A stretch of 64,000 bases of DNA, from positions 95,420 to 159,419 of the forward strand of contig SKCR01038116.1 of NCBI GenBank assembly GCA_019454045.1, written 5' to 3'. This stretch comes from Zanthoxylum bungeanum (taxonomy: Eukaryota > Streptophyta > Magnoliopsida > Sapindales > Rutaceae). Position 1 is the stretch's first letter; the number at the start of each line of letters is the position of its first letter. Shown here one piece after another: positions 1,373-46,905 of this stretch. The translations under genes were made by a program, and so were the position numbers. A model generated the notes under the pieces. It worked only from the letters and a program-made list of their open reading frames with translations. It was not told the origin of the DNA and made no database searches.

Positions 1373-1541
1373 GTGTGTTATTTAACGGGATCCTAGCCCA
1401 CTAGGAAACTAGGTTTCCCGAGTACTCCACAGAGGGTTAGAGGCTCGCTAAAAAATAGTTGGAGGCAAGTATTAAATTATCAATTTCGTTAAAATACTTG
1501 CTAATACGCGCTCATTTAATTTTTCGTCATCAATTTTATAT

Positions 1542-1748: not shown

Positions 1749-1926
1749 AGCAATCAAGATGACTGAAAGATTGGCGTCATATGACATAATCCTGGGGAAA
1801 ATGTCTTTAACGGCTTTAATTTTTAGATTAGGAATAGAACTTCAGAATAGTTATGGGAGCTAGAAGTTATTCTATTTGATAGAGAACCTCTCGAGCCTGA
1901 GCCCGGAGTTGAGTAAATAGTAGAGT

Positions 1927-3936
1927 ATGAGCTTTGGAAGACTCACTGTGATGATAACTTTAGTGCTCAATCCGTTATGCACAGCCGTAGCTTCTTTAAA
2001 GGACATATCCCAAGTTGAAGGAAGAAGGCGGAACAAGGTTCCGGCTTCGAGGATGTTTGTTTTAACATGTTCACTGCTGGTATTAAAATTGATTTTTGAT
2101 ACTAGAAGTGGTACATGAATATATGTACTAATGTGCGGGATCTGCTGATAATCAAGAAACTGGCTTCAAAAGAGATCAACCTACAAGTCAGAAACAGGAT
2201 GAGAGTCGATATTTTGTCCGTATGAACCTAAGTTTTGGAACTGCCCTTAGGGCATGTACTTAAATTAGGAAACTATTATAATGTATCTAGTTTCACTAGG
2301 AACATTATCTCTGTATCTAGTTTAACCCGTTGCGGGTATACCTTTATATTCTAGAACACTAAGTGTTTTGTTTATAAAGATGATATTAAGATAAACACAT
2401 TAGATGTGAATAACAGTATTTATATTTAGAATATAAAGAGATCCCAAACATATAATATGACAAACAAATAGCTCAAATTGAGTAAATCAAATGAGACTTA
2501 TTTGTGGCATTGTCATCTGGGATGCATTAACAAGACTCATATATCCACACTTTCGAAGAGTGGATACTAGAACGGATTTGATTCCAATTCAATGATGTCT
2601 ACGAATCTAGTTTATTAGGCAAAGTGCCTAAACAAACCTTTTACTTGGTAAAAGTCCAAATGCCACCGATCTGTTAGCCCTTGTTCATAGGGACGTAAGT
2701 GGCCCATGTCTAGCTAGGCTAGAGATGGATATGAGTACTTCGTAACCTTTAAGAATGTGGCATCGCGTTACGGTTATGTGTATCTTTTGAAACACAAGTT
2801 AGAGACTTTTGAGTAATTAAAGAGTTTCGACACGAAGTAAGAAAACAGACCGGTAAAAGTATTAGAACATTGCGGTCAGACCATAATGGACAATACTTAA
2901 ACATATGAGTCGCTCTGAGCTACCGATTTCCTTTTGAGGATACACGAATTGATTAGTGCAATACTTATTTTGAATAAGGTTCTATGAAAATCTGTTAGAC
3001 AAACTTCGTATTTGATATGAACAGGAAAGAAACCTAGTTTCTCATTCCTGAAGTTTTGGGAATGCTGGGCATACGTTTGGATGATACCAAACTAGAATCC
3101 AAATCAGATAAGTGCCAATTTGTAGGTTATCCTAAGGAAACCAAAGTATAGTACTTATACAACTCACAAGAGAATAATGTAATTATTGCTCTCCATGCGG
3201 TTTTCCTTAGAGGAATTCCAATATGCAGTGGTAAGTGGGAAGAAAGTAAAACTCGATGAAAATCGGAGTAATACTGTTCCAGGAACCGAATCATTTACGG
3301 AACACCAACGATTCATCAATGATGAAACCACAATTTTCTAATACACAATAACCGACTACGTATGAGGAAATGATACAAGGTATCGACTTTTTTTATGGCA
3401 AAGTGCCATGAAGTCCGAAATGGATTCCATGTATACCAACCAAGTTTGGACACTGGTTGATGTGCCAGAAGGCATTGTGCCTATTGGTACTATATGAGTC
3501 TTCAAGGAAGACATACATGGATGGCAACATAAAAATGTACACAGCTAGGCTTGTACAGAATGGGTATCGTCAAAGACATAGTGTCGAATACGATGAAATT
3601 TTTTCACCTGTTACCACGATTAAATCCATTTGGATAATGCTTGCTATAACTGCATATTTCATTTATGAAATATGAAAACTGGATGCCAGAACCACTTTCC
3701 TTAACGAAAACCTTTTGGAGGATGTTTATATACATCCTGACAGTTTTGTCGGGCTAAAACATGTAAACAAGGTTTGCAAGTTAAATCGATCCATTTATGG
3801 ATTAAAGCAAGTATTACGTTCTTGGAACCAACGTTTTGATAAGAGCATAATGGTATATGATTTAATTCAAAATGAATATGATTCTTGTGTATATAAGAAG
3901 GTTAGTGGGAGCGCATTGACAATGAATGTCCTATAA
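1927..3936 (+). pseudogene. Copia A gag tail and pol (PR, IN, RT), duplication copy 1
   Basis: This is a decayed Copia polyprotein. Around 2020-2120 a gag-tail/protease remnant ends in DTRSGT, which I read as the DTGSGT-type protease motif. Around 2500-2660 a GAG-pre-integrase segment reads LWHC..GCINKTHISTL and SLLGKVPK. Around 2860-2910 an integrase remnant reads RSDHNGQYLN. At 3110-3240 the CQFVGYPKETK segment typical before RT is visible. At 3420-3936 the RT reads SEMDSMYTNQVWTLVDVPEG, the AITAYF region, LEDVYIHPD and LNRSIYGLKQ. Stops and shifts break every domain. Upstream, 1749-1926 holds no recognisable coding sequence. Confidence 0.85.
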
Positions 3937-3940
3937 GTTG

Positions 3941-4567
3941 TGTTAGGTTTCTACTATAGTCCCAAGATCATTCAAGCAATGAAAATAATGTGAATACAAT
4001 AAAGAAGTATGGCGGAATCATACTTACAATGAATGGATTTGCGATGCGATGAACACAAAACTTTCCTTGCTCCATGAAGCTCTCGGCCAAGGTCCTATTT
4101 GTGCTATTTTATTTTCGGTCGACCTCCATTTGAGTGCTCCAAGCTCCAAGCTTTGTAAATGGATTACATGCTCAAGGGTTTGTTTCTCTATCACCTTTGC
4201 ATGACTCTTTAGTGTGCTAGCACTTGGAAAAATTTGCCATAAATTCTTCCTAAAGCTTCTTCATGCTCTCGATATTGAGAGAAATTGAGAGGAAAGAAAT
4301 TGGCCCAAGGTCGAATATGGGAGAGAGAGGAAGAAGATTAGTTATGTGTTTTGTGTAATCTAATACACAAAATGAAAGTCAAATAACAAAATAATAAAAA
4401 AATGGTGAATGTCTTTGAAACCATCACACTTGAGTGTTTGACACTCAACCATCATCCAACAACTTCCATCACAATAAAGTGATAAAGTTGACTAGTGATG
4501 TGACGCATGATGTGACTTATGGGCCCCACTTAATTCGAAATGCGAGTGGGCCTACAAACACTCTCGG
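3941..4567 (-). repeat. Truncated Copia B LTR edge, duplication copy 1
   Basis: The sequence opens with TGTTAGGTTTCTACTATAG, the 3' end of the minus-strand Copia B LTR, right after the target site AGTTG (3936-3940). It matches 8350-8975 and 16193 onward. It ends at the duplication junction and is therefore a 627-bp piece, not an independent insertion. Confidence 0.9.
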
Positions 4568-6328
4568 ATTTTGAAAGCCCATTGGACTTTAATTAAAAGC
4601 CCATTGGACTTTAATTAAATAGTATTGGATACTAATTGGGCCTTTGAAACCCATTAAGATTGGATTTTGAATCTAAGTCTTTAAGGCACATAAAAAAGTG
4701 TAATTATTTAATTTGGAATTAAATATAAATTAGTATTGGATACAATTTAAATTGGATTTAAAATTATAGTTCAATATAATTCAAGAATACCTACTTTAAG
4801 TATTTATTCTTAAACGAGTTTGACTCGCGCAAATCAAATCATTGTATGAACATTGGATGGTCATTAATTCAAAGATTAAATAATTGGATTAGATTGATTG
4901 AATAACATGCTTTGTGTGAATACTTGGATGTAGTATGAATAATGTATATCGGATTGGATATTAGACGGGTGAGGGCAATTTTGGAAATTATTGTAATAAA
5001 TTTAGAATTTTTCAAATTAGACATGCGTGTCCAGCCTATTACCTCTTTTCTCATTGTATTTCTCTTCTTACCAATTCCCCTCAATGTAAATGAGGTTTCT
5101 TTAGAAGTATTATGTAATTGGGTAGAAGTAAGAATAGTGCTAGTGGGAGAGAGGAAATGGAGAGATTTGTTCTAGGAACAAATTATATTATATATCCATC
5201 CGCATATAATTATTAATTTTATCGCGCCTTATTATGCTTTTAGAATGCATGCTTAAGGGTGTATGATGAGACCTAATCAAAGATAATAAATTGGTTGCCA
5301 ATTTACGCGAAAAACCCTCAACAAATATTAAGCGTTTTCCTTCCATTGAGTGATTCATTCCCATGATCCAAGATTGGCACTAGTTTGTTGGCCAAAGTCA
5401 AGACCTTTGACCATCGCGGATGTGTTTGAATCACGAAGGCTTTGTTCCATATCTCATGTCTTGTCCAAGTTGTGATTTGTTGGCCAAAGTCAAGATCACT
5501 TCTTGTCCATCGACATCGATTACGAAGTTTTCCAAAGTCAATGGGTCCCGCTTAACTGGAATCATTAAGCTTGTTGTGCCAAAGCCAATGCTTAGTTGAT
5601 TCAGAGGAAAAGGTTAGGAAAATATATTGGATATATTGGCATATATATTATATATAATATATTTTGGACTTGGAGGTCCACCTACCGGATCTAGGAATTG
5701 GATGATATCCAATTGATCTTAGAGATCTACCTAGTTAAATACCATACAACTTGTTGGCCAAAGTCAAGGTTGTGTGTTATTTAACGGGATCCTAGCCCAC
5801 TAGGAAACTAGGTTTCCCGAGTACTCCACAGAGGGTTAGAGGCTCGCTAAAAAATAGTTGGAGGCAAGTATTAAATTATCAATTTCGTTAAAATACTTGC
5901 TAATACGCGCTCATTTAATTTTTCGTCATCAATTTTATATATATTAGTTTGACTAATATTTAATTGTTGTTTTAATTAAACAGTTGGACTGTATTCAAAC
6001 TACTTCATTTGTGGTTGGTTATATAGTTGGAATATAGTAATCAATACATTTGAATGTAACCAATCAATTGTAGTTGATTATATAGTTAGACTATAGTAAT
6101 CATTATATTTTATTGTACTTGAAATCGTTAATTGGATAGTTGGACTATAGCAATCAAGATGACTGAAAGATTGGCGTCATATGACATAATCCTGGGGAAA
6201 ATGTCTTTAACGGCTTTAATTTTTAGATTAGGAATAGAACTTCAGAATAGTTATGGGAGCTAAGAAGTTATTCTATTTGATAGAGAAACCTCTCGAGCCT
6301 GAGCCCGGAGTTGAGTAAATAGTAGAGT

Positions 6329-8345
6329 ATGAGCTTTGGAAGACTCACTGTGATGATAACTTTAGTGCTCAATCCGTTATGCACAGCCGTAGCTTCTTTA
6401 AAGGACATATCCCAAGTTGAAGGAAGAAGGCGGAACAAGGTTCCGGCTTCGAGGATGTTTGTTATTAACATGTTCACTGCTGGTATTAAAATTGAATTTT
6501 TGATACTAGAAGTGGTACATGAATATATGTACTAATGTGCGGGATCTGCTGATAATCAAGAAACTGGCTTCAAAAGAGATCAACCTACAAGTCAGAAACA
6601 GGATGAGAGTCGATATTTTGTCCGTATGAACCTAAGTTTTGGAACTGCCCTTAGGGCATGTACTTAAATTAGGAAACTATTATAATGTATCTAGTTTCAC
6701 TAGGAACATTATCTCTGTATCTAGTTTAACCCGTGCGGGTATACCTTTATATTCTAGAACACTAAGTGTTTTGTTATAAAGATGATATTAAGATAAACAC
6801 ATTAGATGTGAATAACAGTATTTATATTTAGAATATAAAGAGATCCCAAACATATAATATGACAAACAAATAGCTCAAATTGAGTAAATCAAATGAGACT
6901 TATTTGTGGCATTGTCATCTGGGATGCATTAACAAGACTCATATATCCACACTTTCGAAGAGTGGATACTAGAACGGATTTGATTCCAATTCAAATGATG
7001 TCTACGAATCTAGTTTATTAGGCAAAGTGCCTAAAACACCTTTTACTTGGTAAAAGTCCAAATGCCACCGATCTGTTAGCCCTTGTTCATAGGGACGTAA
7101 GTGGCCCATGTCTAGCTAGGCTAGAGATGGATATGAGTACTTCGTAACCTTTAAGAATGTGGCATCGCGTTACGGTTATGTGTATCTTTTGAAACACAAG
7201 TTAGAGACTTTTGAGTAATTAAAGAGTTTCGACACGAAGTAAGAAAACAGACCGGTAAAAGTATTAGAACATTGCGGTCAGACCATAATGGACAATACTT
7301 AAACATATGAGTCGCTCTGAGCTACCGATTTCCTTTTGAGGATACACGAATTGATTAGTGCAATACTTATTTTGAATAAGGTTCTATGAAAATCTGTTAG
7401 ACAAACTTCGTATTTGATATGAACAGGAAAGAAACCTAGTTTCTCATTCCTGAAGTTTTGGGAATGCTGGGCATACGTTTGGATGATACCAAACTAGAAT
7501 CCAAATCAGATAAGTGCCAATTTGTAGGTTATCCTAAGGAAACCAAAGTATAGTACTTATACTTATACAACTCACAAGAGAATAATGTAATTATTGCTCT
7601 CCATGCGGTTTTCCTTAGAGGAATTCCAATATGCAGTGGTAAGTGGGAAGAAAGTAAAACTCGATGAAAATCGGAGTAATACTGTTCCAGGAACCGAATC
7701 ATTTACGGAACACCAACGATTCATCAATGATGAAACCACAATTTTCTAATACACAATAACCGACTACGTATGAGGAAATGATACAAGGTATCGACTTTTT
7801 TTTATGGCAAAGTGCCATGAAGTCCGAAATGGATTCCATGTATACCAACCAAGTTTGGACACTGGTTGATGTGCCAGAAGGCATTGTGCCTATTGGTACT
7901 ATATGAGTCTTCAAGGAAGACATACATGGATGGCAACATAAAAATGTACACAGCTAGGCTTGTACAGAATGGGTATCGTCAAAGACATAGTGTCGAATAC
8001 GATGAAATTTTTTCACCTGTTACCACGATTAAATCCATTTGGATAATGCTTGCTATAACTGCATATTTCATTTATGAAATATGAAAACTGGATGCCAGAA
8101 CCACTTTCCTTAACGAAAACCTTTTGGAGGATGTTTATATACATCCTGACAGTTTTGTCGGGCTAAAACATGTAAACAAGGTTTGCAAGTTAAATCGATC
8201 CATTTATGGATTAAAGCAAGTATTACGTTCTTGGAACCAACGTTTTGATAAGAGCATAATGGTATATGATTTAATTCAAAATGAATATGATTCTTGTGTA
8301 TATAAGAAGGTTAGTGGGAGCGCATTGACAATGAATGTCCTATAA
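6329..8345 (+). pseudogene. Copia A gag tail and pol, duplication copy 2
   Basis: This is the second copy of the decayed PR-IN-RT region at 1927-3936, with the same stops. Small indels move the frames: here the gag-tail segment reads on through FVINMF, as in Copia B, whereas copy 1 shifts there. RT ends with KKVSGSALTMNVL and then the Copia B insertion. The host reading resumes at 26318 with DDVLL, which restores a YVDD-type motif across the insertion. Confidence 0.85.
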
Positions 8346-8349
8346 GTTG

Positions 8350-10339
8350 TGTTAGGTTTCTACTATAGTCCCAAGATCATTCAAGCAATGAAAATAATGT
8401 GAATACAATAAAGAAGTATGGCGGAATCATACTTACAATGAATGGATTTGCGATGCGATGAACACAAAACTTTCCTTGCTCCATGAAGCTCTCGGCCAAG
8501 GTCCTATTTGTGCTATTTTATTTTCGGTCGACCTCCATTTGAGTGCTCCAAGCTCCAAGCTTTGTAAATGGATTACATGCTCAAGGGTTTGTTTCTCTAT
8601 CACCTTTGCATGACTCTTTAGTGTGCTAGCACTTGGAAAAATTTGCCATAAATTCTTCCTAAAGCTTCTTCATGCTCTCGATATTGAGAGAAATTGAGAG
8701 GAAAGAAATTGGCCCAAGGTCGAATATGGGAGAGAGAGGAAGAAGATTAGTTATGTGTTTTGTGTAATCTAATACACAAAATGAAAGTCAAATAACAAAA
8801 TAATAAAAAATGGTGAATGTCTTTGAAACCATCACACTTGAGTGTTTGACACTCAACCATCATCCAACAACTTCCATCACAATAAAGTGATAAAGTTGAC
8901 TAGTGATGTGACGCATGATGTGACTTATGGGCCCCACTTAATTCGAAATGCGAGTGGGCCTACAAACACTCTCGGGCTCGGGTTCGCTAATTCTGAATTA
9001 ACGAATTTTCCGTTGCGCCGTAATTAAATCAAATTTAATTAAATAATTATGCCTAGCAAAATTACTATTCATGTCGCTAGCGAATTAATTCTAAATTAAC
9101 TCGTTCGCCTGAATTAAAATCCAAGTTTAATTCTGCTTCGAAATCTAATTTCATTTAATATATCGAATATATTATTTTATCGATTAATTCCAAATTAATC
9201 GTTCTCTCTCTTTAATAGTATTTTATCCCAGATAAAATATCTCCGTAATTAATCCTAGATTAATTTTCTCTCTTTATTAATTAATCTCAGATTAATAATG
9301 TGAGAGTCATACGTCATCGGTGAATCTTCGAGAAGCGACCCATGAGATCCCCGGATATGTTGCAGTAAATCCGATTGTCGGACTATCCGAACACGTACGT
9401 ACCAAGTACTACGTTTTTACCGATTTACAAGACATGATTGGCTTCTAGCAAAGCACCGTGCCTACCCAATTCTCCAGAAATATTCTTAAAGGAATATGTA
9501 ATCTGTATCAGGCGTAGTATACGTAGTATTGCGTATTGCGATCCAGTATCAGATGTCACGTGTTAGGCCTGGGGTTGGAATTGTGTCTGCCCCGTACGAA
9601 GCACATGTCGGATCTCTGGTAACTAGTCTCTATAATCAGATAAACATGACCTATTCATAATATCCCGATAGCTGCAGCATATAAGAGCACCAGTTTCGTA
9701 ACTTACATGATCATCACTCCACTATGACTGGAGTGATATTTCTGTCTTGACATCACACCCAATACACTATGATTCTCAATATACCCAGAAGAGGCGTACA
9801 CAGAACCGGTTAAAGCCCTGGACGACCAAAACAAAAGTATATTGATTGTCGCAAGTATTAGCGGTGCAAGTCTCAGGTTAAGACCAAATACACCTACCCT
9901 GATTCGGACTTCCATAGACACATAGTCTTACTACCAATGGAATTCCGAGGGGTCTATCCAGAGCGAAGCTGTTTCCGTACCATTGGTAAACACAACCTCC
10001 TATCACACTTGCATAAGTATCCAATACTTAAATATATGAGAACTATGTCATTATGCTCCCACAACGGGCACAAGTGCAATACTAGTCTATTCCGCATTAT
10101 CGATGTCCAATCTCGATAATACTACGAATAGGGATAATTTAATGATTAAACCTTCATGGATTGATACTGTCTGATATCATCTCAATCCGGAACTAATCAT
10201 ATGGACTTTTATCATTTATAAATCCGGGTAATCTAATTACAAATGATAAAAGAGCAATTTCATTTGTCACATAGTTAATTTGTACAACAACACAATGTTC
10301 TATACAAATAGTGATGCTATGGGTCATAATTGTCCAACA
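8350..10339 (-). repeat. Copia B 3' LTR
   Basis: On the plus strand it starts TGTTAGGTTTCTAC and ends ATTGTCCAACA. The RNase H-side PPT abuts it at 10340. A cassette of mini-hairpins lies at about 9075-9300. It contains no gene; small open frames in it match no family and recur in every LTR of this group. Confidence 0.92.
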
Positions 10340-16192: not shown

Positions 16193-17284
16193 TGTTAGGT
16201 TTCTACTATAGTCCCAAGATCATTCAAGCAATGAAAATAATGTGAATACAATAAAGAAGTATGGCGGAATCATGCTTACAATGAATGGATTTGCGATGCG
16301 ATGAACATAAAAATTTCCTTGCTCCATGAAGCTCTCGGCGAAGGTCCCCTTTGTGCTCCTTTATTTTCGATCAACCTCCATTTGAGTGCTCCAACCTCCC
16401 AGCTTTGTAAATGGATTCCATGCTCAAGGTTTGTTCCCTATCACCTTGGATGACTCTTTAGTGTGTTAGCACTTGGAAAAATTTGCCACAAATTCTTCCT
16501 AAAGCTTCTTCATGCTCTCGGCATTGAGAGAAATTGAGAGGAAATAAATTGGACCAAGGCCGAATATGGGAGAGAGAGGAAGAAGATTAGTTGTGTGTGT
16601 GTGTTGTGTAATCTAATACACAAAATGAAAGTCAAATACCAAAATAATAAAAAATGGTAATGTCTTTCAAGCCATCACACTTGAGTGTTTGGCACTCCAG
16701 ATCATCCAACAACTTCCATCACAAAAAGTGATAAAGTTGACTAGTGATGTGACACATGATGTGACTTGTGGGCCCCACTTGATTCGAAATGCGAGTGGGC
16801 CCGCAAAACCTCCGGCCTCAGGTTCGCTAATTTCGAATTAACGAATTTTCCGTTGCGACGTAATCAAATATAATTAAATAATTATGCCTAGCAAAATTAC
16901 TATTCACATCGCTAGCGAATTAATTCTAAATTAAAGCGTTCGCCCGAATTAAAATCCATTTTAATTCTGCGTCGAAATCTAATTTCGATTAATATATCGA
17001 ATATTATTTTATCGATTAATTCCAAATTATTCGTTCTCTCTTTAAAAATTATTTTATCACAGATAAAATATCTCCGTAATTAATCCTAGATTAATTTTCT
17101 CTTTTATTAATTAATCCAGATTAATAATGTGCGAGCCATACGTCATCGGTGAATCTTCGGAAGCGATCCATGAGATCCCCGATAGTTGGCAGTAAATCCG
17201 GTCGTCGGACTATCCGAACATGTACGTACCTAGACTACGTTTTTACCGATTTACAATACATGGTTGGATTCTAGCAAAGCACCG
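16193..17284 (-). repeat. Copia B 5' LTR, first part
   Basis: It is homologous to 8350-9465 and is cut at AAAGCACCG by Athila K. The remainder is at 25432-26312. Confidence 0.92.
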
Positions 17285-19419
17285 TGATGAGTGGTATTTA
17301 TATCACTTATTCCCACTCATTTGACCTAATATTTTGTATAGTTTCTTGAGTTTTGTGAATGTTTTGATATGGTTTGTGTTATTTTGTAGATAAATAAAGT
17401 TTGGAAAGCATTGGAGGCAATTTGGGGCAAAAACGGACAAAAATGCGTCAACAGGGATATTTTGGTCTTAAGCGCGTCGCGACGCCAAGACTTTCACGTC
17501 GCGACGTCTAAAATGCGCCGAACAGTGCTAAAGTGCACCAGGTCCACAAATCAGAATCTGAGAAAAGTTTGACTTTGCTAACATGCGCCGTGCCACATGT
17601 CAGCATCCTACGGTGCCGACAGTCATCATCGCCACGTGTTCCACGTGTCATTCCATGTCATCAGCCACGTCAGCAAGTCAACAAGTCAACATTGGCACCT
17701 CACTGCCACATCATCATCAGCCAATCAGGAAGTGACACGTGTCACAATTCTACGGTGCCGACAGTCTCTTTCCTACGTGTCGCCACGTCGTCGCCACGTC
17801 ACCACCACGTCAGCATCAATAATTGAGTATCTAATCCTTATCTGACACGTGGCGGATAAGAATCTCATCGACCAATCAGAAGCCACCACGTGTCACAATA
17901 ATTGAAGCCCAACCACCATCCACGTGTCACATTATCAGCTTATCCAGAATCTTCAAACAGACGAACCAGAGCGTGCCACGTCGATAAAAGCTAGCGTAGC
18001 GACGCAGAGGCCTTGGCGTCGCGACGCTGGAAGCTTATCGCGCCTATAAATTGAGCTCGAGATTTCAGAATTGAATGCACCACTCTCTCTCTTATAATCT
18101 TTCTAAAGAGAGAGTTTTCTCTCTACTTTCTTTTAATTTTTAGTTTTTTTTTAGTTTTTAGTTTTGTAATTAATTTTAATTACGTTTTGTTAATATAGTA
18201 ATTTAATTTTTACTTTTTACAGTTTTTATTATTTACCATGAGGAGGTAACTCCCCCAGCTAGGGTGAAAGGTAATTCTTTTACTGTTACTATTTAGATTA
18301 ATCTCCCTTAAAAATAATATATTCACTATTTAAAATATTGACTTAAAAAGGATACCGCCAGATTGGTCGGTTGGTAATTCATTTTAATCTGATTTAAACC
18401 TGACTAATAAAGGATACCGCCAGATTGGTCGTTGGTAATTTAATTTTGGTTCCGCCTTTATGGCTGGTTGGACTTAATTTGACTTAATCAGGTTACCGCC
18501 TATATGGCTGGTTGGAAAAAGAATCACAAGTTTATATATTATTTTGGGAGATATCTAAATTAGTAGTAGTAAAAGTAATTCCTTTTACCTTAGCATTTTA
18601 TTTTATTGTAATTTACTTTTCAGTATTTACTTTACCGTATTTTTACTTTATGTCTTTTATTTTCAAGTTTTTACTAGCCCTAGTTATGTGTTGTAACTAA
18701 ATTAGTTATCTGGGGTTGTGATGAAATCCAATATCACCGTTTTATAAGGGTTAGATTATAGCTTGGGTAATATAAAGATTTATTTATTGAGTCTTAAACT
18801 TAATGCTTTTTCTTTCTTGGCCATTAATAAAATTGATCTGGTAAATCTAAAATGAACTAGACATAGGGATTTTAGGTTTCAGCCTTAGACTCAATAGCCC
18901 ACGATCTTCCTTGAGGATAGATAACCCTTTAATAGATTTCCTTACAGGATAGGAATATACCTGTCGGGCGGGGGTAGCCATAATTGGAACTTAAACTTAA
19001 TGAATCCAGATAATTTGGTTGACATAGACATATGGTTCAATTGGGTTAAACTGGGTATTTGTGTCTGACCATCGACAGAGGCTTACATATAATTTAGTGT
19101 TCCAGGTTAATAAATCAATATATTACCCAACTTTAAGATAACCACTTCATCTTTAAAATGATATTGGAAGAAATCACAACCCTAGATAGTTTTTAATATT
19201 GAATTTTCTTAAAACCTAATTTCGACAATTTTATTTACTTGCTGTTAAATTTAGAATCGTCACCATTTCAAATCAATCAATCAACCTGTTAGATACTAGT
19301 AATCATTTGACCTCATAAAATTAATAGATTAGATATTAAGTCCTCGTGGGATCGATATTTTTATACTACTTGAACGATACGTGCGCTTGCGTTATACGTG
19401 TGTGTTTACGCTCCGGTCA
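17285..19419 (+). repeat. Athila K 5' LTR
   Basis: The LTR starts TGATGAGTGG and ends CTCCGGTCA. U3 contains CG-rich palindromes (GTCGCGACG near 17477, 17501 and 18018) and a G-box cluster. A TATA box lies at 18045. U5 contains about 60-bp degenerate repeats around TACCGCC...GGTTGG (18350-18515). No second copy of this LTR is in the window. Confidence 0.9.
17607..18050 (+). promoter_or_regulatory. Athila K LTR promoter: G-box cluster plus TATA box
   Basis: Six CACGTG G-boxes occur at 17633, 17642, 17736, 17846, 17887 and 17921; four are CACGTGTCA. Many further ACGT cores (CCACGTC, CTACGTG) lie between them. A direct repeat beginning CTACGGTGCCGACAGTC occurs at about 17608 and 17750. The TATA box CTATAAATT is at 18044-18052, about 120 bp after the last G-box. 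bZIP/bHLH factors, including ABA-response bZIPs, bind such sites; use by this LTR is inferred. Confidence 0.7.
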
Positions 19420-19425
19420 AGTTTT

Positions 19426-19443
19426 TGGCGCCGTTGCCGGGGA
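19426..19443 (+). other. Athila K primer-binding site
   Basis: TGGCGCCGTTGCCGGGGA lies six bases after the LTR end. This is the tRNA-Asp-type PBS typical of Athila and related Gypsy elements. Confidence 0.9.
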
Positions 19444-19549
19444 CTTATTTATCTTTCACTATTAGTTTAGGGGTTAGATACGTTACTTGTATCTAATTTC
19501 TTTTTACTTATTGTTTTTGTTTTCTTGTGTTTCAGGTTCTCAGAACTAC

Positions 19550-21236
19550 ATGAGACGAACCAGAAGCTTTGAACTCTGATCGCTTGACCCAGAAATTGAA
19601 AGAACCATCAGACAGTTGAGAAGGGAAAGGCGAGAAGGCGAAGAAGCTTTAGTCAACATGGAACCTGAACCTTTGATCGTTGCACCACCAATTCCCATTC
19701 GAGACAGAACCATTCCGGTGGTTGACAGACTCATTTCCTGTATTGTACTTCCTCCCTTACCAGCAAATGCGTGTGACATCAAAACATGCATTCAGATGAT
19801 TCAGCAGTCAGTTCAATTCGGGGGGAATGCAACTGAAGATCCTAATGCCCACATCAGTAACTTCCTGGAAGTTTGCGGCACTTTTAACTACAACAGAGCA
19901 TCAGAAGAAGCAAAGAGACTGCGAGTTTTTCCATATTCCCTGAAGGACAGAGCTAAAGCTTGGCTACATTCACTACCAGCAGGTTCCATCACAACTTGGA
20001 ACACTTTAGCCACCAAATTTCTTGCAAAATACTTTCCACCAGCCAGAACCGGAAAGCTGAGGAATGACATCACATCCTTTGTACAACAAGATTCAGAATC
20101 CCTCTGCGAAGCTTGGGAAAGGTACAAAGATTTACTCCGGAAATGTCCTCACCATGAGATTCCAAAATGGCTTCAAGTCCAAACATTCTATAATGGCTTT
20201 CTGGAATAATGAGAACCACAATCGATGCTGCTGCTGGAGGAGCCTTGATGGCAAAAGGAGAAGATCAAGCCTGGGACCTAATCGAAGAAATGGCCAACAA
20301 CAATTCCTTGTGGCCAACAGAAAGGAGCATGATCCAAGAATTGCAGGAATTTATGAAGTTGGAGCAAACACAGCAGTGAATACCAGGCTGGATCAGATAT
20401 GCAAATGTCTAGAAACACTTAGCACGCAAGTTGTGAACATCACTGGAACCACAAGTTCACCATATGGAGGAGCACCAGAACCGAACCAACTTGAAGAAAC
20501 GGTGAATTATGTCAACAATTTCAACAGACAAGGGAACAATCCAAATTCCAACACCTACAACTCATGGTGGAGGAATCATCCTAATTTTTCATGGAGCAAC
20601 AATTCAGGCCAACAGTAGAACTATCCACCACTTGAATTCCAGCAACAGAACAAAAGCCATGAGCAAGCAAATGAACCAAGAATAACAGAAGTGTTGACCC
20701 ACTTGAAAAAGATAGAAGCAAAACACGACTCCCACGCAGCAAGATATGATGCTATGTTTCAATCCCAAGCAGCATTAATTCAAAGTCAATCTGCTTCTAT
20801 TAAAGCACTGGAGAATCAAATTGGACAACTGGAAAATGCTCAGAGTTACAGACCGCCAAGTACCTTTCCTAGCAACACGGAGCCAAATCCAAGAAACATG
20901 GGGAAGGAGTAATGTCATGCCATCATGTTAAAAAGCGGTACTGAAATCAACAAAGATGTTGGAGCCAAAACAACTGCTGAGGAAGTTCCAAAAGAAACAA
21001 AGCAACAGATGGAGGAAAAAGAAGCAAAGGAAAATGAACAGATCACTCCACCTCCACCTTTTCCTCAACGTCTTCAGAAGAACAAATTGGACAAGCAATT
21101 TTCCCGTTTCCTGGAGATCTTCAAAAAGCTGCATATCAACATTCCATTTGCATAAGCGTTGGAACAAATGCCCACCTATGCCAAATTCATGAAAGATATT
21201 CTTTCACGAAAACGGAGATTGGGAGATTACGAGCAG
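19550..21236 (+). pseudogene. Athila K gag (broken)
   Basis: Gag starts at MRRTRSFEL (19550). Codon 10 is TGA where related elements usually continue. The core (about 19780-20206) shows EDPNAHISNFLEVC, LKDRAKAWLHSLPAGS, WNTLATKFLAKYFPP and ESLCEAWERYKDLLRKCPHH, the Retrotrans_gag domain that builds the virus-like particle. A frame change near 20207 leads through GGALMAKGEDQAWDLIEEMA, and a second near 20340 into LDQICKCLETL and NTYNSWWRNHPNFSW. Stops at 20616 and 20910 follow. The tail (20925-21235) holds PFPQRLQKNK, FLEIFKKLHINIPF and YAKFMKDILSRKRR, the gag/protease linker of Athila elements. Confidence 0.9.
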
Positions 21237-21289
21237 TAGCATTAACAGAAGAATGCAGTGCCATCATTCAGAGGAAACTTCCCCCAAAG

Positions 21290-21650
21290 TTGAAAGATCC
21301 TGGCAGTTTCACTGTTCCTTGCGTCATATAGAAGACATAACTTTGGTAAGGCTTTGTGTGATTTAGGTGCGAGTGTTAACTTGATGCCTTTTTCTATTTT
21401 CAGGAAATCACAGATTGGAGAAACAATGCCAACTTCAGTCTCACTGCAACTTGATGATAGAACACTCATATTTCCGAGAGGTGTAGTTGAGGATGTGTTG
21501 GTCAAGGTTGACAAATTCATTTTCCCAGCAGATTTTATTGTCCTTGATATGGAGGAAGACACAGACGTGCCAATCATCCTCGGGAGACCATTCTTGGCTA
21601 TAGGTCGAACCATTATTGATGTATAAAAAAGAGAACTAACCATGAGGGTA
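21290..21650 (+). pseudogene. Athila K aspartic protease
   Basis: The retropepsin region reads LCDLGASVNLMPFSIF (catalytic D-L-G-A-S, about 21354-21380). VSLQLDDRTLIFPRGVVEDV and PADFIVLDMEED follow, with ILGRPFLA (the second conserved loop) near 21580-21600. A TAA ends the segment at 21624, and KRELTMRVQDQELTFNVFKAMK continues in the same frame to about 21800. The catalytic motif is intact, but gag upstream is broken, so activity is unlikely. Confidence 0.9.
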
Positions 21651-21799
21651 CAGGACCAAGAACTAACATTCAATGTTTTCAAAGCCATGAAATTCCCAGA
21701 TGATGAAAAGAATGAGGAATGTTTCAGACTTGATGTGATACATAGTACCGTTCAGTACTCTGATGAAAGACAAAGTTCTACTGACAACTTAAAACATGT

Positions 21800-22237
21800 C
21801 AATTGCCTGTGGAGCCTAAAGATAAAGCATATTTTGTTCTGAAGGAGCCAATTTTTGCACTACAAGCAACAGAAGAGAAAACGTTCCACCAGCTCAATGA
21901 ATTGGAGGAATTTCACAATCAGCCTTTTGATGATGCCAAATTGTACAAAGAAAATGGCAAGAAGAAGAGACATGATGAGAAGTTAGTGCGCATACAACTG
22001 GAACCAGGGAAGAAGGTACTGTTAAACAAATCAAGGGTGAAATTCTTCCCATGGAAGCCAAAATCACGGAGGTCAGGTCCATTTGTGATCACCAAAGTTT
22101 TACCAAATAGAGCCGTTGAGATACATGATCCTGACGCTAACAAAACTTTCAAGGTTAAGAACAAGCATGTCAAGCACTACTGGGGAGAATCATTTGAGCG
22201 ACAAAAAGAAAGTGTTACACTTTCAGATCCAGCTTAA
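21800..22237 (+). pseudogene. Athila K integrase C-terminus fused after protease
   Basis: From about 21803 the frame reads PVEPKDKAYFVLKE, LNELEEFHNQPFDDAKLYKE, EPGKKVLLNKSRVKFFP, RSGPFVITKV and KHYWGESF, the C-terminal part of Athila-type integrase. The preceding segment is the protease tail, so RT, RNase H, and the zinc and core domains of integrase are missing. The deletion joint is at about 21795-21805. This segment alone cannot reverse-transcribe or integrate. Confidence 0.88.
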
Positions 22238-22374
22238 CGTTCGAGAAGTCAAGTCTGGCTGACGACTTTAAACTTAGCGCTAGCAGGGAGGCAACCCATG
22301 CAATTTGTTGTATATTGTGATTTGGTGTGTTTTATTTTTGTGTGTTTAATTTTTACAGGTTTAGTCATTTCAAA

Positions 22375-22886
22375 ATGGAAGATGCTCTCGCAAATCTTCG
22401 CAAGCAATTTCCTTCCCTCCCTCAAAAATCTCTGATGAAAGTCTACAAAGCTCGCTTGGAACGGATGAGACTACTGATGATCAAAGGTATTCCTAATGAC
22501 ATTCGTTGGGTAATTGAAGTACGAGTCCGATTGGCAGGTGAGTCTTCTGACTCTTTTATTTCACATCTGCCTGGTTTTGGAAGAAGCACCTATGCAAAGA
22601 AACGTAGAGCTAAGCAAATGGTGTTTGTTTCAAATATGCACGATTTAATTGCAACACTCGTTGTCGTTCTTTAGGAATGGTGTCTGATAATCGCGAAGAC
22701 AAAATTAAATTCATTAGGGATGGCTTGAGTAATGAGTCTTTAGATGATATATCTTTAACTCTTGAGACGCATCCCAGTGGATATGTTCACATAGCCATTC
22801 GCAAATTACATACACAATTCCAAAAGGAAAGACAACAGTTAAGTCTCGGGAATCTGACTCAAAAGACCCTGTTTGCCAATTTATAA
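22375..22886 (+). CDS. Unknown ORF X in the env-like position of Athila K (one frameshift)
   Basis: The ORF starts MEDALANLRKQFPSLPQKSL and continues as a basic, helix-prone sequence (VYKARLERMRLLMIKG, STYAKKRRAKQM). Near 22650 a +1 change joins it to RCRSLGMVSDNREDKIKF and THPSGYVHIAIRKLHTQFQK, giving about 168 codons. I recognise no domain, signal peptide or membrane segment. It lies after the integrase tail, where Athila elements carry env-like ORFs, and before the LOG-like gene. It could be an element-specific ORF or another captured host fragment. Confidence 0.45.
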
Positions 22887-23180
22887 GAAAATTGGATGGG
22901 AAGCTTGTCCCTGACGCATAGACGTCAATCAAGCCGTTAGTTTTCTTGTAAATATTATATCTCTTTGTCTTTTCTTAATAATTGTGATTTGTTGTTATCT
23001 TTTATTTTCTCCAACAGGATGCAGACCTTTTTGACCTTTCACGATTTCTTTTGTGTTACCTAACAATCGTCATTTGGAAGATATTAGTGCTATTATTACT
23101 CACCCTTTTTCAGGTACTATAAATTCAGCCCGTCATTGCACTTTTGAAGGCATCCAGAGTTAAGAAAGAAATAAAAAAAA
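22887..23180 (+). promoter_or_regulatory. Spacer before the LOG-like gene: possible splice acceptors and TATA
   Basis: The spacer is pyrimidine-rich with two acceptor-like ends, TTTTCTCCAACAG (about 23007-23019) and CCTTTTTCAG (about 23104-23113). TATAAAT at 23118-23124 is about 60 bp upstream of the ATG. An A-run leads into the start codon (AAAAATGGAAG), a good plant initiation context. Env-like ORFs of Athila elements are thought to be expressed from spliced RNA, so either splicing or a private promoter could serve the gene. This is inference from motifs only. Confidence 0.35.
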
Positions 23181-23832
23181 ATGGAAGCCACTTCAAGAAG
23201 AGGAGTTGAAAACATCTGTGTGTTTTGCGGTAGTAGTGTTGGAACTAAGCCACAATACATAGAAGAAGCACAAGAATTAGGTCGAGTCTTAGCTGCAAGA
23301 AATATGCACTTAATATATGGCGGAGGAAATCTTGGACTTATGGGGATCGTTTCAAAGGCTGTACAAGAGGGAGGCAGTCATGTTTTGGGAATCATTCCAA
23401 AACCCTTGGCAGAGGCAAATCTTATTGGATCATCAAACAGAGAGGAACTGATCGTGCCAGGTATGTCTGAACGACTGGTAGAAATGATTAACCGTGCTGA
23501 TGCTTTTATCGCTTTGCTAGGTGGCTTGGGTACATTAGAGGAAATTTTTATAGTTCTATCTTGGGCGAACCTGAACATACACTAGAAACCGCTTAGACTG
23601 CTCAACGTTGATGGATTTTATAATTTTCTTTGTGTGTTTCTTGATGATGCTCGGAGAAATGGGTTCGTTCAAAACCTTTGAAAGAACTCATCTTTACTGC
23701 TAGAACTGCTCCGGATCTAATAGACCAACTCATAGCCTATGAACCACGAGTTGACCCTATCCTTTCAAAGATAAATTGGTCCGAGGATGATCGTGGTAAG
23801 AGGCGTCGAATTAATCTGGATCTTAACCTTTA
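23181..23832 (+). pseudogene. Captured LOG-like gene (cytokinin riboside 5'-monophosphate phosphoribohydrolase)
   Basis: LOG enzymes release active cytokinin bases from their nucleotides in the plant cytosol. Residues 1-134 read as a continuous LOG fold: ICVFCGSSVGTKPQY (12-26), LIYGGGNLGLMG (44-55), HVLGIIPKPLAE (67-78), M-S-E-R98-L-V-E-M, and LGGLGTLEE (113-121), the family's PGGxGTxxE signature with Pro and the aromatic both changed to Leu but the final Glu kept. A TAG at 23583 follows WANLNIH. The same frame then continues KPLRLLNVDGFYNFL and LDDARRNGFV to about 23672. After a shift the tail is LIFTARTAPDLIDQLIAY, ending KRRRINLDLNL. Plant LOG genes normally have several introns and none is visible, which suggests capture as cDNA. 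Loss of activity is likely but not proven. Confidence 0.88.
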
Positions 23833-23889
23833 ATTTCCTGTAGATTTTCAACTAACCAAGTACGACCTTCTTAACTCTCCTTTTACTGT

Positions 23890-23935
23890 TTAAGACATTG
23901 GGGACAATGTCTCATTTAGGTTTGGGGGAGGGAAT
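23890..23935 (+). other. Polypurine stretch after the LOG-like gene
   Basis: GACATTGGGGACAATGTC is followed by TTTGGGGGAGGG (about 23921-23932). This is a familiar landmark after the coding region of Athila-type elements and may be an internal polypurine tract. The true 3' PPT next to the 3' LTR is missing in this copy. Confidence 0.6.
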
Positions 23936-24344
23936 TAGTTGATCAGTACCTTGTGTTTTAGTTGTGTGTTATTTTTATTTTTAGTCCAAATTTTTCGAAA
24001 ATTACAAAAAAATTGAAAAATTTTCAAAAATTACAATAATATTTTGCGTTTTTGTGTTTTTATTTTGACTAAAAAGGTGAAATTGGTAAGAGATAGCTGA
24101 GTAAGGAGTTTCCACTCCTGAGACGTATCTCAAACCTATTTCGAAACAAGTTAATTTTTGTTTATTTTATTTTGAATTATTTAATTTGTGAATTCTCCTT
24201 AAAACGGACTAAAATGGATCTTCATTTGTTCAGTTAGGAGATATTATCAACATATATAGTAACATACGGACATGAGCTAAAATTGAAAAGTTTGTAATAT
24301 TCAGTGCTCTAGTTTAATTGGAGGAAACATTTCAAAAAGCAATG

Positions 24345-24895
24345 GAGTAAAAAAAAAAATAAAACAAAATAAATGTCTGAGATCCGGGTTATTAAGTCTG
24401 TAAAGGTGTTTTAACACCTAGTGCCCTAAAACCAACTGGTTTGGGAGTCACTGGCCCAAAGCTCGTTACATGGATCGAAGATGCTGCAAAAATATATATA
24501 TCTGAAGTCTGAGTAATTAAGTCCGTAGGGGTGTCTTAACACCTGGTGCCCTAAAACCAACTTGTTTGGGGGTCACCGACCCAACACTCGCTACATAGAT
24601 GGAAGATATTGTATATAAATAAAAAAAAAAATAAAACAAAATAAATGTCTGAGATCCGGGTTATTAAGTCTGTAAAGGTGTTTTAACACCTAGTGCCCTA
24701 AAACCAACTGGTTTGGGAGTCACTGGCCCAAAGCTCGTTACATGGATCGAAGATGCTGCAAAAATATATATATCTGAAGTCTGAGTAATTAAGTCCGTAG
24801 GGGTGTCTTAACACCTGGTGCCCTAAAACCAACTTGTTTGGGGGTCACCGACCCAACACTCGCTACATAGATGGAAGATATTGTATATAAATAAA
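24345..24895 (+). repeat. 272-bp tandem repeat, two units each of two half-repeats
   Basis: ATGTCTGAGATCCGGG recurs at 24373 and 24645. Each 272-bp unit contains two diverged half-units of about 120 bp, both with TTAAGTC, TTTTAACACC or CTTAACACC, GTGCCCTAAAACCAACT and TACATRGAT. Each half-unit has a short hairpin (AGGTGT-TTTA-ACACCT or GGTGT-CTTA-ACACC). Units are separated by A-rich runs. It is non-coding and lies in the 3' untranslated region of Athila K. Confidence 0.9.
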
Positions 24896-25426
24896 AAAAA
24901 ATAAAAAATTCAAAGAAAAAATCAGAAAATGAGAAAAATTATTCCATTGCTACAAAAAGGTGTGAAATCTGATAGAACTTTAGGGCAAAAATATTACTCT
25001 CTTATCAACTGCACTTATGACTGTTGTGGGAAAAAATGAGTTGATTAATATTTTGTTGGCTGTGTATATGGAGAATCGTAAATATAATCGGAGAATTTAC
25101 TTATTCAGTAATTTAAAATAAAACAAAACAACTAGTAAGTTGGAGTAGAAGTTTCACCTGATTAGTCACTAACATCTTTATTCTCTTTTCGCTTGTCTTT
25201 TTGCTTTTGTGTGCATTAGTTTTACTACCATTTTACTTTTGTAAAATGTTTGTGGGTATCATTGCTGTAAACCCTCACGAGACTACAACTCGTCCACTAT
25301 GGACACCTAGGGGTTTAAAGGCTTGTTGCATATGCTAAATGCATCTGTGAGCCCTACAAAAGTGGCTTAGTTAATTTATTTATGTTATTTTACTCTATGT
25401 TTTGCTCGAGGACTAGCAAAATGTCA
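24896..25426 (+). other. Athila K 3' untranslated end, no gene
   Basis: AT-rich sequence ends with TGCTCGAGGACTAGCAAAATGTCA. In related elements a GAGGACTAGCAAA-like end is followed by a G-rich PPT and the 3' LTR. Here it stops at the target site. Confidence 0.7.
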
Positions 25427-25431
25427 CACCG

Positions 25432-33218: not shown

Positions 33219-34765
33219 ATCTCCCACTTGGCCTATAGCCAATCACTCAAGTATCTAACACCTGAACTATGTATATGTCGCTCAAACTTTTGCTGAGAAA
33301 TAGCCTTCGTCAGCGGATCTGCAATGTTATCATCTGATGTGAACTTCTCGATCTTCACATCCCCAGGATGTATGATCTAACGAATCAGATGGAAACGTCG
33401 AAGTACATGCTTGGATCGTTGATGAGACCGCGGTTCCTTAGCCTGCGCTATAGCCCCGTTATTGTCACAATAAAATGAACGGGTTCAACTGCTAATAGAA
33501 CTACTCCTAATTCAATCAGGAATTTACGGATCCAAACTGCTTCTTTTGCTGCTTCAGCTGCAGTGATATATTCTGTTTCTGGTGTTGAATCAGCAACAGT
33601 CTCTTGTTTGGAAGATTTCCAGCTCACTACTCCGTTGTTCAAACAAAATATGTACCTGAATTGCGACTTACAGTCAGTAAACCCAGTTACCTCAAGTTCT
33701 CCATCTCCATAGATTAAGAAAGCATCCTTAGTTCCTCTAAGATACTTAAGGATGTTCTTAACCGCAACCCAATGACCATCACCTGGATCATTCTGATAGC
33801 GACTACACATGCTCAAAGAATACGAGACATCAAGTCTCTTACATATCATGGCATACATGATCAATCCGACTGCTGAAGCGAATGAGATCCGACTCATGTT
33901 TTCTCTCTCATCTTGAGTTTTATGACACATGTCCTTAGATAGAGAGACGCCATGTGACACTGGCAACAGTCCCCTCTTAAACTGATCCATGATGAATCTC
34001 TTCAATACTTTGTCAATATATGAGCTCTGGGAGAGTCCAAGCATCTTTCTAGATCTATCCCGGTAGATCCTTATTCCCAGAATAAAAGCTTCTTCTCCCA
34101 GATCTTTCATGGAGAATTTCAATGAAAGGCAAGCTTTCACCGATTGTAGCATGGGAATGTCATTGCCAATAAGCAATATATAATCAATGTAAAGGACAAT
34201 GAATGTCAGTACGCTCACACTAACCTTCTTATATACACAAGGATCATCTTCATTTTGAGCGAAATCATATTCTTTTATGATCTCATCAAAATGTTGGCTC
34301 CAAGAACGCGATGCTTACTTCAATCCATAAATGGATCGATTTAACTTGCAAACCTTATTTGCATGTTTTGACACGATAAAACCGTCAGACTGTTGCATAT
34401 AAACATCCTCCAAAAGGTTTCCATTAAGAAAAACGGTTTTGACGTCCATCTGCCATATTTCATAATCGAAATTTGCAGCAGGTGAAAAAGTTTTATCATA
34501 ATCGACACCATGTCGTTGATGATACCCTTTCATTACAAGCCTAGCTTTGTACGTTTGTATGTTGCCATCCATGTCAGTCTTCTTCTTGAAGATCCATTTA
34601 CAACCAATAGGCTTTACGCCTTCTGGTGCATCAGCCAGTGTCCAAACTTGGTTGGTATACATATAATCCATTTCGGACTACATGGCTTCTTGCCATAAAG
34701 TGGAGTCGATACCTTGTATCACTTCCTCATACGTAGCCGTCTAATTATCCTCATTAAGTTAATTG
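33219..34765 (-). pseudogene. Copia 0 RT and RNase H (best preserved in the window)
   Basis: In element sense, RT at 34671-34315 reads MDYMYTNQVWTLADAPEGVKPIGCKW, EIWQMDVKTVFLNGNLLEDVYM and KLNRSIYGLK. After a short broken stretch a 256-codon frame (34218-33448) holds LYIDYILLIGND, SLKFSMKDLGE, LGIRIYRDRSRKMLGLSQ, NILKYLRGTKDAFLIYGDGELEVTGFTD and ADSTPETEYITAAEAAKEAVWIRKFLIELG. The catalytic pair is YIDY instead of YVDD, so RT activity would be lost. A frameshift near 33475 leads to NNGAIAQAKEPR and the RNase H end. The PPT is at 33219-33231. At about 34740-34765 pol stops at a junction with element H. Confidence 0.9.
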
Positions 34766-44859: not shown

Positions 44860-46905
44860 TGTTGGATAATATGACCCATAGCGTCACTATTTGCACAGAT
44901 CATTGTGTTGTTGTAGCAAATTAACTATGTAATAAGGAAATTGCACTCTCATCGTTTGTGATTAGATCACCATAGATATATAAATGAAGAGAGGTCCCTA
45001 TGATTAGTTCCTGGACTGAGAATGATATGAGACAGTATCAGTCCCCAAAGGTTTAATCATTAATATCCCTAGTCGTAGTATTATCGAGACTGGACATCGA
45101 TAATGCGGAATAGACTAGTATTGCACTTGTGCGCGTTGTGAGGGCACAACGGCATAGTTCTCATATATATAAGTATTGGATACTTGTGCAAGTGCGATAG
45201 GAGGTCGTGTTTCACCACGATGGTACGGGAACAGCTTCGCTCTGGATAGACCCTTCGGAATCCCATTGGTATTATGACTAGGTGTCTATGGGAGGCCGAA
45301 ATCAAGGTAGGTGTGTATAGTCTTAACTGAGACTTACATCGCTAATACTTACGACAATCGGTAACTTTAGTTTTGGTGGTGGGGGATCTTAACTGGTTCT
45401 GTGTTCACCTCTTCTGGGTTTATCAGAGAATCGTAGTGTATTGGATGTGATGTCAAGACGGAAGTGTCACTCCAGTCATAATGGAGATGATGTCACGCAG
45501 GATACGGTATTAGTGCTCTTAAAGTGATGCGCATCCAATCGTGATATTATGACCAGGTCATGAATATCCGATTATAGAGACTAGTTACCAGACATCCGAT
45601 ATGTGTTTCGGACGGGGCAGACACTTATCCAGCCCCAGCCCTAGCACGTGATTATCCGATACTGGGCCGATACGCACAATACAATTGTATACTACGCTTG
45701 ATACAGATCTAGATATTCTTTGATGAATATGTCCGGAGAACTTGGGAGACTTGGTGCTTTGCTAGGAGTCGACCTTGTCTCGTAAATCGGTAGAACGTAG
45801 TACTTGGTACGTACGTGATTCGGGCACTCCGACGACCGTATTTACTGCCAACTTATCCGGGGATCTCATGGGTCGCTTCCCGATAATCCACCGATGACGC
45901 ACAACTTGCACTCTTGAATAATCTGGGATTATAATAGAAGAGAGAGAAAATTAATCTAGGATTAATAACGGAGATGTTTTTCCGGATAAAATATCGTCTA
46001 AAGAGAGAAACGATTAATTCGGAATTAATCGATGTATTAATATATTCGATATATTAGACGAAATTAGATTTCGACGCGGAATTAAAATAGATTTTAATTC
46101 GGGCAAACGAGTTAATTGAGAATTAATTCGTTAGCGACGTAAATAATAATTTCGCCGGGCGCGATTATTTATTAAATTCGATTGAATTAACGTCGCGACG
46201 TAAGCTCGGTATTTCGGAAATATCGAACCCGAACGCGTGAGTGCACGTGGGCCCACTTCATTTGGAAACGTGTGGGGCCCACAGACACATGTCATTCTAA
46301 TGCTTTGCATGTAGATTGTGTACATTGTACTCAATGTCATTGCATGTAGATTGTGTACAATGCACTCAATGTTATTGCATGGAAATTGAGTGTTTTATAC
46401 TCTAAGCCATTGCATGTTATGTGTCATAATTTTATTATTAATTTAATAAATTATGGCATAAATATAAATTGATTTTTGGTAAATCATTTTAATTAACAAT
46501 ACACATTTTTCTCTCTCTCTCAATTTCTCTCTTCTCCTCACGAAATCTACAAAGTGTGGACTGTTTTTGGAAGCCAAAAACCGTGAGCTAAAGGGAAGCA
46601 AGAGTGGTTTCTCATGGTGAGAAATCAAGTGCTAGCACACTTACAAGTCTTGCGAAGGTGGTAGGGAGGTTCGACCATGAGACGGGATCCATCCGACGAA
46701 GCTAGGAGCTCCGTTTCTTCACTTAATTTTCTGTTTTTGTAGGCAGTGGACTGCATGCAGTAGGCTTACATGGCAGTGCGTTTTTGGGCTTGAATCGTCT
46801 CAAATCGACTCTACCGATCAATGTGAGTATTCCGCTACCTCCGTTGATGTGTTCACACATAATTTCATGTCTTGATTTGATCTTGGGACCTTAGAAAACC
46901 CAACA
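44860..46905 (+). repeat. Copia C 5' LTR
   Basis: TGTTGGATAATATGACCC...ACCCAACA, 2046 bp. A hairpin cassette lies at about 45917-46229. A TATA box TATAAA at about 46463 is followed by a CT-rich stretch, the likely U3/R border. It contains no gene. Confidence 0.93.

What the first reader, a model, noticed from the sequence alone, without database searches (positions are those of the whole stretch)
23181..23832. An Athila-like retrotransposon carries a LOG (cytokinin-activating) coding sequence
Seen: a continuous LOG-type N-terminal two-thirds (FCGSS, YGGG, GLMG, Arg98, GGLGTLEE), with C-terminal parts recognisable after one stop and one shift. It lies between the Athila integrase tail and the ACATTGGGGACAATG/polypurine landmark, inside a well-defined element with TSD. 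Known: LOG proteins act on cytokinin nucleotides; plant LOG genes have several introns. Inferred: the sequence was captured as cDNA and mobilised, possibly giving a retroelement that influences host cytokinin levels. I know of no such description.
Basis: partly seen in the sequence, partly recalled or inferred. Interest (0 to 1): 0.92.

Follow-up and report, generated by a model that had tools for sequence, protein, structure and literature searches.

The report
Dead retrotransposon-borne cytokinin-activating enzyme gene
A broken plant jumping gene carries a damaged copy of a plant-hormone-activating enzyme gene; such carriers were already reported in citrus and poplar, but intact relatives share an unexplained conserved tail that hints at a job in the cell nucleus.

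Summary
A LOG (TIGR00730/PF03641) coding sequence lies at 23181-23833, + strand, with one in-frame stop after codon 134 and one frame change near codon 163. It sits inside an insertion (17285-25426) with a CACCG target-site duplication and a homologous unfilled site in the window. It shows no introns and lies in sense with gag. The insertion is itself a wreck: no 3' LTR, and none of its 12 ORFs of 90 aa or more matches a reverse transcriptase or integrase family. An element-borne LOG is not new: LOG-type (YgdH) domains are reported in Gypsy LTR-retrotransposon consensuses of Citrus and Populus (PMC9289625, citing Steinbauerova 2011). Intact 217-aa relatives (up to 90% identity) exist, and one shares this element's leader upstream of LOG, so the gene looks like an old part of an element lineage. 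Not found described: a C-terminal basic + LxLxL tail, which where present is as conserved (62% mean pairwise identity) as the enzyme core (62%), while the linker before it is 38%. Best explanation: the lineage encodes an active LOG, perhaps nuclear, that raises free cytokinin in cells where the element copies itself. This copy is a fossil. Influence on host cytokinin is untested.

The parts
17280..17284 (.). left target-site duplication CACCG
   Evidence: continuous at the homologous unfilled site near 9455
17285..19419 (+). 5' LTR (TGATGAGTGG...CCGGTCA); no matching 3' LTR
   Evidence: left border from the TSD, right border placed just before the primer-binding site (inference); no LTR partner in self-BLAST
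19426..19443 (+). primer-binding site TGGCGCCGTTGCCGGGGA (tRNA-Asp type, assignment recalled)
   Evidence: tRNA-Asp is among the primers of non-chromovirus Gypsy elements (PMC6317226 passages)
19580..20209 (+). gag ORF; gag-like sequence goes on in another frame (a relative continues at 20212-20340)
   Evidence: PF03732 E=2.7e-23; relatives to 90% identity in the list; continuation
21294..21626 (+). protease-like ORF
   Evidence: only a weak PF08284 match, E=0.16; assignment recalled
   Evidence: ORF list; no Pfam integrase match; assignment recalled, not tested
22375..22674 (+). small ORF with a sub-threshold match to carlavirus nucleic-acid-binding protein
   Evidence: PF01623 E=0.0035, 17.7 bits against cut-off 20.9
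22614..22886 (+). ORF piece in another frame with a short cysteine cluster; link to the previous ORF is a guess
   Evidence: no family match
22948..23017 (+). intron-like stretch GT...CTCCAACAG (70 nt), possible splice acceptor for LOG expression (inference)
   Evidence: leader around it is shared with relative P0029
23181..23582 (+). LOG codons 1-134
23583..23833 (+). LOG remainder after an in-frame stop, with one frame change near 23669; ends in the basic + LxLxL tail and a stop
23895..23909 (+). ACATTGGGGACAATG landmark
23921..23932 (+). polypurine-like TTTGGGGGAGGG
24348..24891 (+). two tandem copies of a 272-bp unit in the 3' part of the element
25427..25431 (.). right target-site duplication CACCG; element ends ...ATGTCA at 25426

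Best explanation
A decayed Athila-type (OTA superclade) LTR-retrotransposon copy carrying an accessory gene for a type-I LOG phosphoribohydrolase in the sense 3' position. The gene entered an ancestor of this element lineage as an intronless sequence and has been kept as a working 217-aa gene in relatives. Shown: homology, no introns, sense position inside TSD borders, intact relatives with the predicted fold, R98/E121 and a conserved tail. Inferred: the protein is expressed from a spliced or downstream reading of the element RNA, cleaves cytokinin nucleotides to free cytokinin, and is taken to the nucleus by its basic tail; raised cytokinin would favour dividing, meristem-like cells in which the element can copy itself and reach the germ line. 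The copy in this window is a pseudogene and does nothing.
For: Family and fold; model of intact relative P0002 at pLDDT 85.6, best PDB matches the Arabidopsis LOG-type proteins 2a33 and 1ydh, TM 0.95 and 0.93 by target for the best chains. Element context: TSD and unfilled site, gag, P0029 shares the leader upstream of LOG (54.7% over 75 residues, E=3.3e-16). Retention: of 135 relatives of 205-245 aa (of 190 LOG relatives listed in two searches), R98 in 125, E121 in 131, L.L.L tail in 112. Tail conserved like the core in the rows that have it, linker not. Dispersal: nine Reevesia-named clusters whose gene names give eight different chromosomes. Prior reports in Citrus and Populus elements.
Against: No genomic context for relatives except P0029's leader; protein libraries hold only intact ORFs, so counts of intact copies are biased, and member counts pool many metagenome samples, so they are not copy numbers. 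Enzyme activity, expression, nuclear import and any effect on cytokinin are untested. Scores to the bacterial equivalog model of the cytokinin enzyme (NF058542) are far below its cut-off of 300 (89.3 for the window piece, 104.8 to 127.3 for three intact relatives). No RT was found, so the lineage is not settled. Fifteen of 135 relatives lack the tail. Whether host LOG genes also bear it could be checked only against two Arabidopsis structures, whose matches end before it.
Confidence: 0.6

Rival explanations
1. Passenger: the LOG gene was transduced once and is carried without benefit; intact copies are simply young.
For: This copy is broken; gene transduction by plant retrotransposons is known (PMC7264820).
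Against: Relatives only 47-66% identical to P0002 (most rows of A2) keep length, R98, E121 and mostly the tail; the tree has two supported groups (100/99 with 15 rows, 96/94 with 20 rows). The library's bias to intact ORFs weakens this.
Confidence: 0.17
2. The protein is kept mainly for its tail: a nuclear LOG-fold protein that binds a host corepressor (LxLxL, EAR-like) to alter silencing, with the enzyme reaction secondary.
For: Basic + LxLxL tail as conserved as the core in an otherwise variable, low-confidence end.
Against: Catalytic residues are kept too; six Xanthoceras-named and three unnamed relatives stop before LxLxL; the EAR reading is recalled, no binding shown.
Confidence: 0.13
3. 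A host LOG retrogene or LOG locus next to, not part of, the element.
For: Canonical LOGs are host genes; some relatives are annotated as LOGL10 in Populus.
Against: LOG lies inside TSD borders between gag and the 3' end; leader shared with P0029; no introns.
Confidence: 0.05

Closest known systems
YgdH/LOG-bearing Gypsy LTR-retrotransposons of Citrus sinensis, C. clementina and Populus trichocarpa (Alvarado-Marchena 2022, PMC9289625; citing Steinbauerova 2011)
   Same: LOG-type domain as an extra domain in a Gypsy element of dicots
   Different: Host here unnamed; in this copy no RT was found, the 3' LTR is missing and LOG is broken. The section read does not mention a tail.
Plant type-I LOG proteins (At2g37210 and At5g11950; called LOG3 and LOG8 from recall)
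   Same: Fold, PGGxGTxxE region, R98, E121
   Different: They fall outside the 40 element-type rows in the tree (94/97). At position 99, Lys in both, 123 of 135 relatives have L, I or M and 11 have K; at 96 they have S in 75 and H in 37. Matches to them end before the basic + LxLxL tail.
Orchid Gypsy elements with an AlkB-type m6A demethylase (PMC9289625)
   Same: Host-type enzyme as accessory gene of a Gypsy element
   Different: RNA demethylase shown active in vitro (abstract); LOG acts on cytokinin nucleotides
Athila/Calypso env-like 3' ORFs
   Same: Sense ORF between pol and 3' LTR, possible spliced expression (PMC7264820)
   Different: LOG is predicted to be a soluble enzyme, not a membrane protein

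Membership tests
LOG (TIGR00730) family | Family profile above curated cut-off | tested here: met
   123.2 bits against 96.35 for the window piece
LOG (TIGR00730) family | PGGxGTxxE and R98/E121 | tested here: met
   R98, E121 and GGxGTxxE present; the leading Pro is Leu in the window, as in 11 of 135 relatives
LOG (TIGR00730) family | Cytokinin-nucleotide phosphoribohydrolase activity | not testable with these tools
   needs assay; bacterial equivalog cut-off not reached
LOG (TIGR00730) family | Full-length open frame in this copy | tested here: not met
   one stop and one frame change
LTR retrotransposon | TSD of 5 bp and TG...CA ends | tested here: met
LTR retrotransposon | Pair of LTRs | tested here: not met
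   3' LTR missing in this copy, possibly lost across a GTCA microhomology (inference)
LTR retrotransposon | gag | tested here: met
   PF03732
LTR retrotransposon | Reverse transcriptase and integrase | tested here: not met
   no such Pfam match at E<=1 in the 12 ORFs of 90 aa or more (7, 5); 84 ORFs of 40-89 aa not scanned
Athila lineage | RT/INT phylogeny | not testable with these tools
   no RT found
Athila lineage | Primer-binding site and sense 3' extra ORF | tested here: inconclusive
   tRNA-Asp-type site (recalled match) at 19426 and LOG in sense; neither is exclusive to Athila
Carlavirus nucleic-acid-binding protein (PF01623), ORF 22375-22674 | Profile above gathering score | tested here: not met
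   17.7 and 18.4 bits for two cuts of the ORF against 20.9

The most novel reading that the evidence does not exclude
A widespread lineage of dicot Gypsy elements encodes a nuclear cytokinin-activating enzyme with a corepressor-binding-like LxLxL tail, so a transposable element makes its own plant hormone (or reprograms hormone-response chromatin) in the cells where it moves; in this family a small virus-like nucleic-acid-binding protein may be encoded just upstream.
Probability: 0.2. Interest if true: 0.8.

Novelty: new member of a known kind. Interest (0 to 1): 0.42.

Why it matters
If intact copies are active, a transposon lineage would carry a hormone-activating enzyme, linking transposition to host cell division. 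The conserved tail gives a concrete, testable handle on why Gypsy elements keep host-type enzymes as accessory genes. The window itself shows only a fossil of this.

Tried and rejected
Host locus next to the element: disfavoured, LOG lies inside the TSD borders and shares its leader with a relative. Chance resemblance: rejected. Close kin in IMG/VR or GTDB contigs: LOG, gag (32), the integrase-like ORF (33) and both upstream ORF pieces (44, 55) gave none; the alignment search of IMG/VR gave 21 distant loci (25-55% identity, many over only 29 residues) that I did not follow. Folding the ORF at 22375-22671 alone gave pLDDT 54.1, too poor for a structure search. LTR dating: impossible without a second LTR. 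A first tail pattern was badly written and was replaced by the count. tRNA scan: none.

Papers: ten searches. In their listings and the papers opened, only PMC9289625 ties LOG/YgdH to LTR elements; most listed papers were not opened. PMC9289625: outline, passages and the section on extra domains. PMC7264820: first two of three parts. PMC6317226, PMC11728184, PMC11963269 and PMC10606437: passages only; the last has a PF03641 host gene in an eccDNA-rich window, not an element gene. The searches for an EAR-type tail in LOG or in Gypsy elements were seen as listings only; nothing there claimed it in title or abstract start.

The host plant is not named: its genome could not be searched.

Full report
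OBSERVATION. The frame 23175-23585 (+) is open for 136 codons and reads as the N-terminal two-thirds of a LOG protein. It matches Lysine_decarbox PF03641 (E=9.3e-21) and LDcluster4 PF18306 (E=2e-17), TIGR00730 above its curated cut-off, and 17 distinct solved sequences, the best At2g37210 at E=5.3e-38. Aligned to intact relatives it runs from codon 1 to 163 in one frame with a single in-frame stop after codon 134, then changes frame once and runs from 164 to 217. Of 1153 six-frame pieces in the window only the three LOG pieces match an intact relative at E<=10.

THE ELEMENT. The insertion spans 17285-25426, is flanked by CACCG, and interrupts a repeat whose unfilled counterpart lies near 9455 in the same window. 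The left end is an LTR (17285-19419) followed by a primer-binding site at 19426-19443, which I recall as tRNA-Asp type. Gag is clear (PF03732; 404 relatives among 547 candidates, best 120 listed). Protease-like and integrase-tail-like ORFs follow; those two names are recalled, with no significant Pfam match. None of the 12 ORFs of 90 aa or more in the element matches an RT, RNase H or integrase family at E<=1 (7, 5); 84 shorter ORFs of 40-89 aa were not scanned. There is no 3' LTR: self-BLAST finds no pair, a sensitive comparison of the ends gives only short, weak matches, and no 12-mer is shared. Both the 5' LTR end and the right end of the element finish in GTCA, so loss of the 3' LTR across this microhomology is possible but unproven. 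LOG lies at the sense 3' position, upstream of an ACATTGGGGACAATG landmark and a polypurine stretch.

RELATIVES. A search with the 134-codon piece gave 1283 proteins at E<=1e-5 among 1316 candidates; 120 are listed. The best three are 217-aa LOGs, 88-90% identical, from unnamed ENA sources; the first named plant is Populus at 63%. One relative, P0029, is read through from upstream and shares the window's leader upstream of LOG (54.7% identity over 75 residues, E=3.3e-16), so leader and LOG travel together. A second search from P0048 listed 120 of 7732 and named Xanthoceras, Populus, Reevesia, Diplodiscus and Parasponia. Reevesia has nine named clusters whose gene names give eight different chromosomes, which suits a dispersed repeat, although no flanks could be read. 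Two clusters hold more than 200 member sequences (P0094; P0302), but members may come from many samples and are not copy numbers. In a 44-row tree the window groups with P0001-P0004 (100/99), inside a 15-row group (100/99) beside a 20-row group (96/94) with Populus, Reevesia, Diplodiscus and Parasponia; At2g37210 and At5g11950 fall outside the 40 remaining rows (94/97). The row called Cglut_5zbj there is Pseudomonas aeruginosa. Only 39 of 190 LOG relatives were put in the tree, and ordinary host LOGs other than the two Arabidopsis ones are missing.

THE PROTEIN. The model of P0002, with an alignment of 34 rows, has pLDDT 85.6 and matches LOG structures. Of 135 relatives of 205-245 aa (of 190), R98 is kept in 125, E121 in 131 and the motif Pro in 124; the window has Leu at the last. 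The last 11 residues, K-K-R-K/R-L-D-L-x-L-x-L, lie in the low-confidence end (204-217 under pLDDT 50). Of 34 rows, 25 were left after removing rows 85% or more alike; in these the mean pairwise identity is 0.618 for the core (10-185), 0.38 for the linker (190-206), 0.44 for the N-terminus (1-9) and 0.62 for the tail, the last over 210 pairs, that is, only rows that have the tail; 4 of 25 have gaps at its last five columns. L.L.L with a basic cluster occurs in 112 of 135; the 23 others are 8 near variants and 15 without it, among them six Xanthoceras-named proteins (P0076, P0082, P0098, P0244, P0247, P0250) and P0038, P0039 and P0049, which stop just after the basic residues. Matches to the two Arabidopsis structures end before the tail. 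Reading it as nuclear signal plus EAR-like corepressor motif rests on recalled consensus patterns.

MECHANISM. Shown: a LOG gene inside a Gypsy-type element, intact in relatives and with conserved catalytic residues there, dead here. Inferred: expression from a spliced message (a 70-nt intron-like stretch with acceptor at 23017 precedes LOG), release of active cytokinin, nuclear placement, and benefit to the element in dividing cells.

KNOWN OR NEW. PMC9289625 (results section on extra domains read in full) reports the YgdH domain, found in LONELY GUY proteins, in Gypsy LTR-retrotransposon consensuses of two Citrus species and, with a filter off, P. trichocarpa, in line with Steinbauerova 2011 (not held; reference seen). 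The kind is therefore known. In ten paper searches I did not find an account of the conserved tail or of a tested function.

SIDE FINDING. An ORF upstream of LOG (22375-22674) has a sub-threshold match to the carlavirus nucleic-acid-binding family (E=0.0035, 17.7 bits against 20.9); a piece in another frame holds a cysteine cluster but matches no family. IMG/VR scans gave no kin. It is a lead only.

Noticed in passing
22375-22674 and 22614-22886 (+): Small ORF upstream of LOG with a sub-threshold match to carlavirus nucleic-acid-binding protein PF01623; a neighbouring frame piece holds a cysteine cluster. A virus-like accessory gene in an LTR element would be notable if intact relatives confirm it.
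   Followed up: partly
20054-20160 (-): Rfam snoR71 (RF00097) matches the antisense strand of gag, 52.2 bits against 40; possibly a repeat-derived family match rather than a snoRNA gene.
   Followed up: no
189-4567 and 4589-8975: Tandem duplication of about 4.4 kb at 99.5% identity, recent or an assembly effect.
   Followed up: no
44860-46905 and 53100-55151: Direct repeats of about 2 kb at 98.7% identity, possibly LTRs of a young element.
   Followed up: no
33448-34677 (-): Copia-type reverse transcriptase (PF07727) pieces.
   Followed up: no
50376-50817: Tandem array of a unit of about 88 bp, shifted copies 96-99% identical.
   Followed up: no
20619-20912 (+): Gag-region ORF with only weak, below-cut-off coiled-coil-type Pfam matches.
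   Followed up: no
L001-L021: IMG/VR loci with distant LOG-like genes, 25-55% identity; not examined.
   Followed up: no
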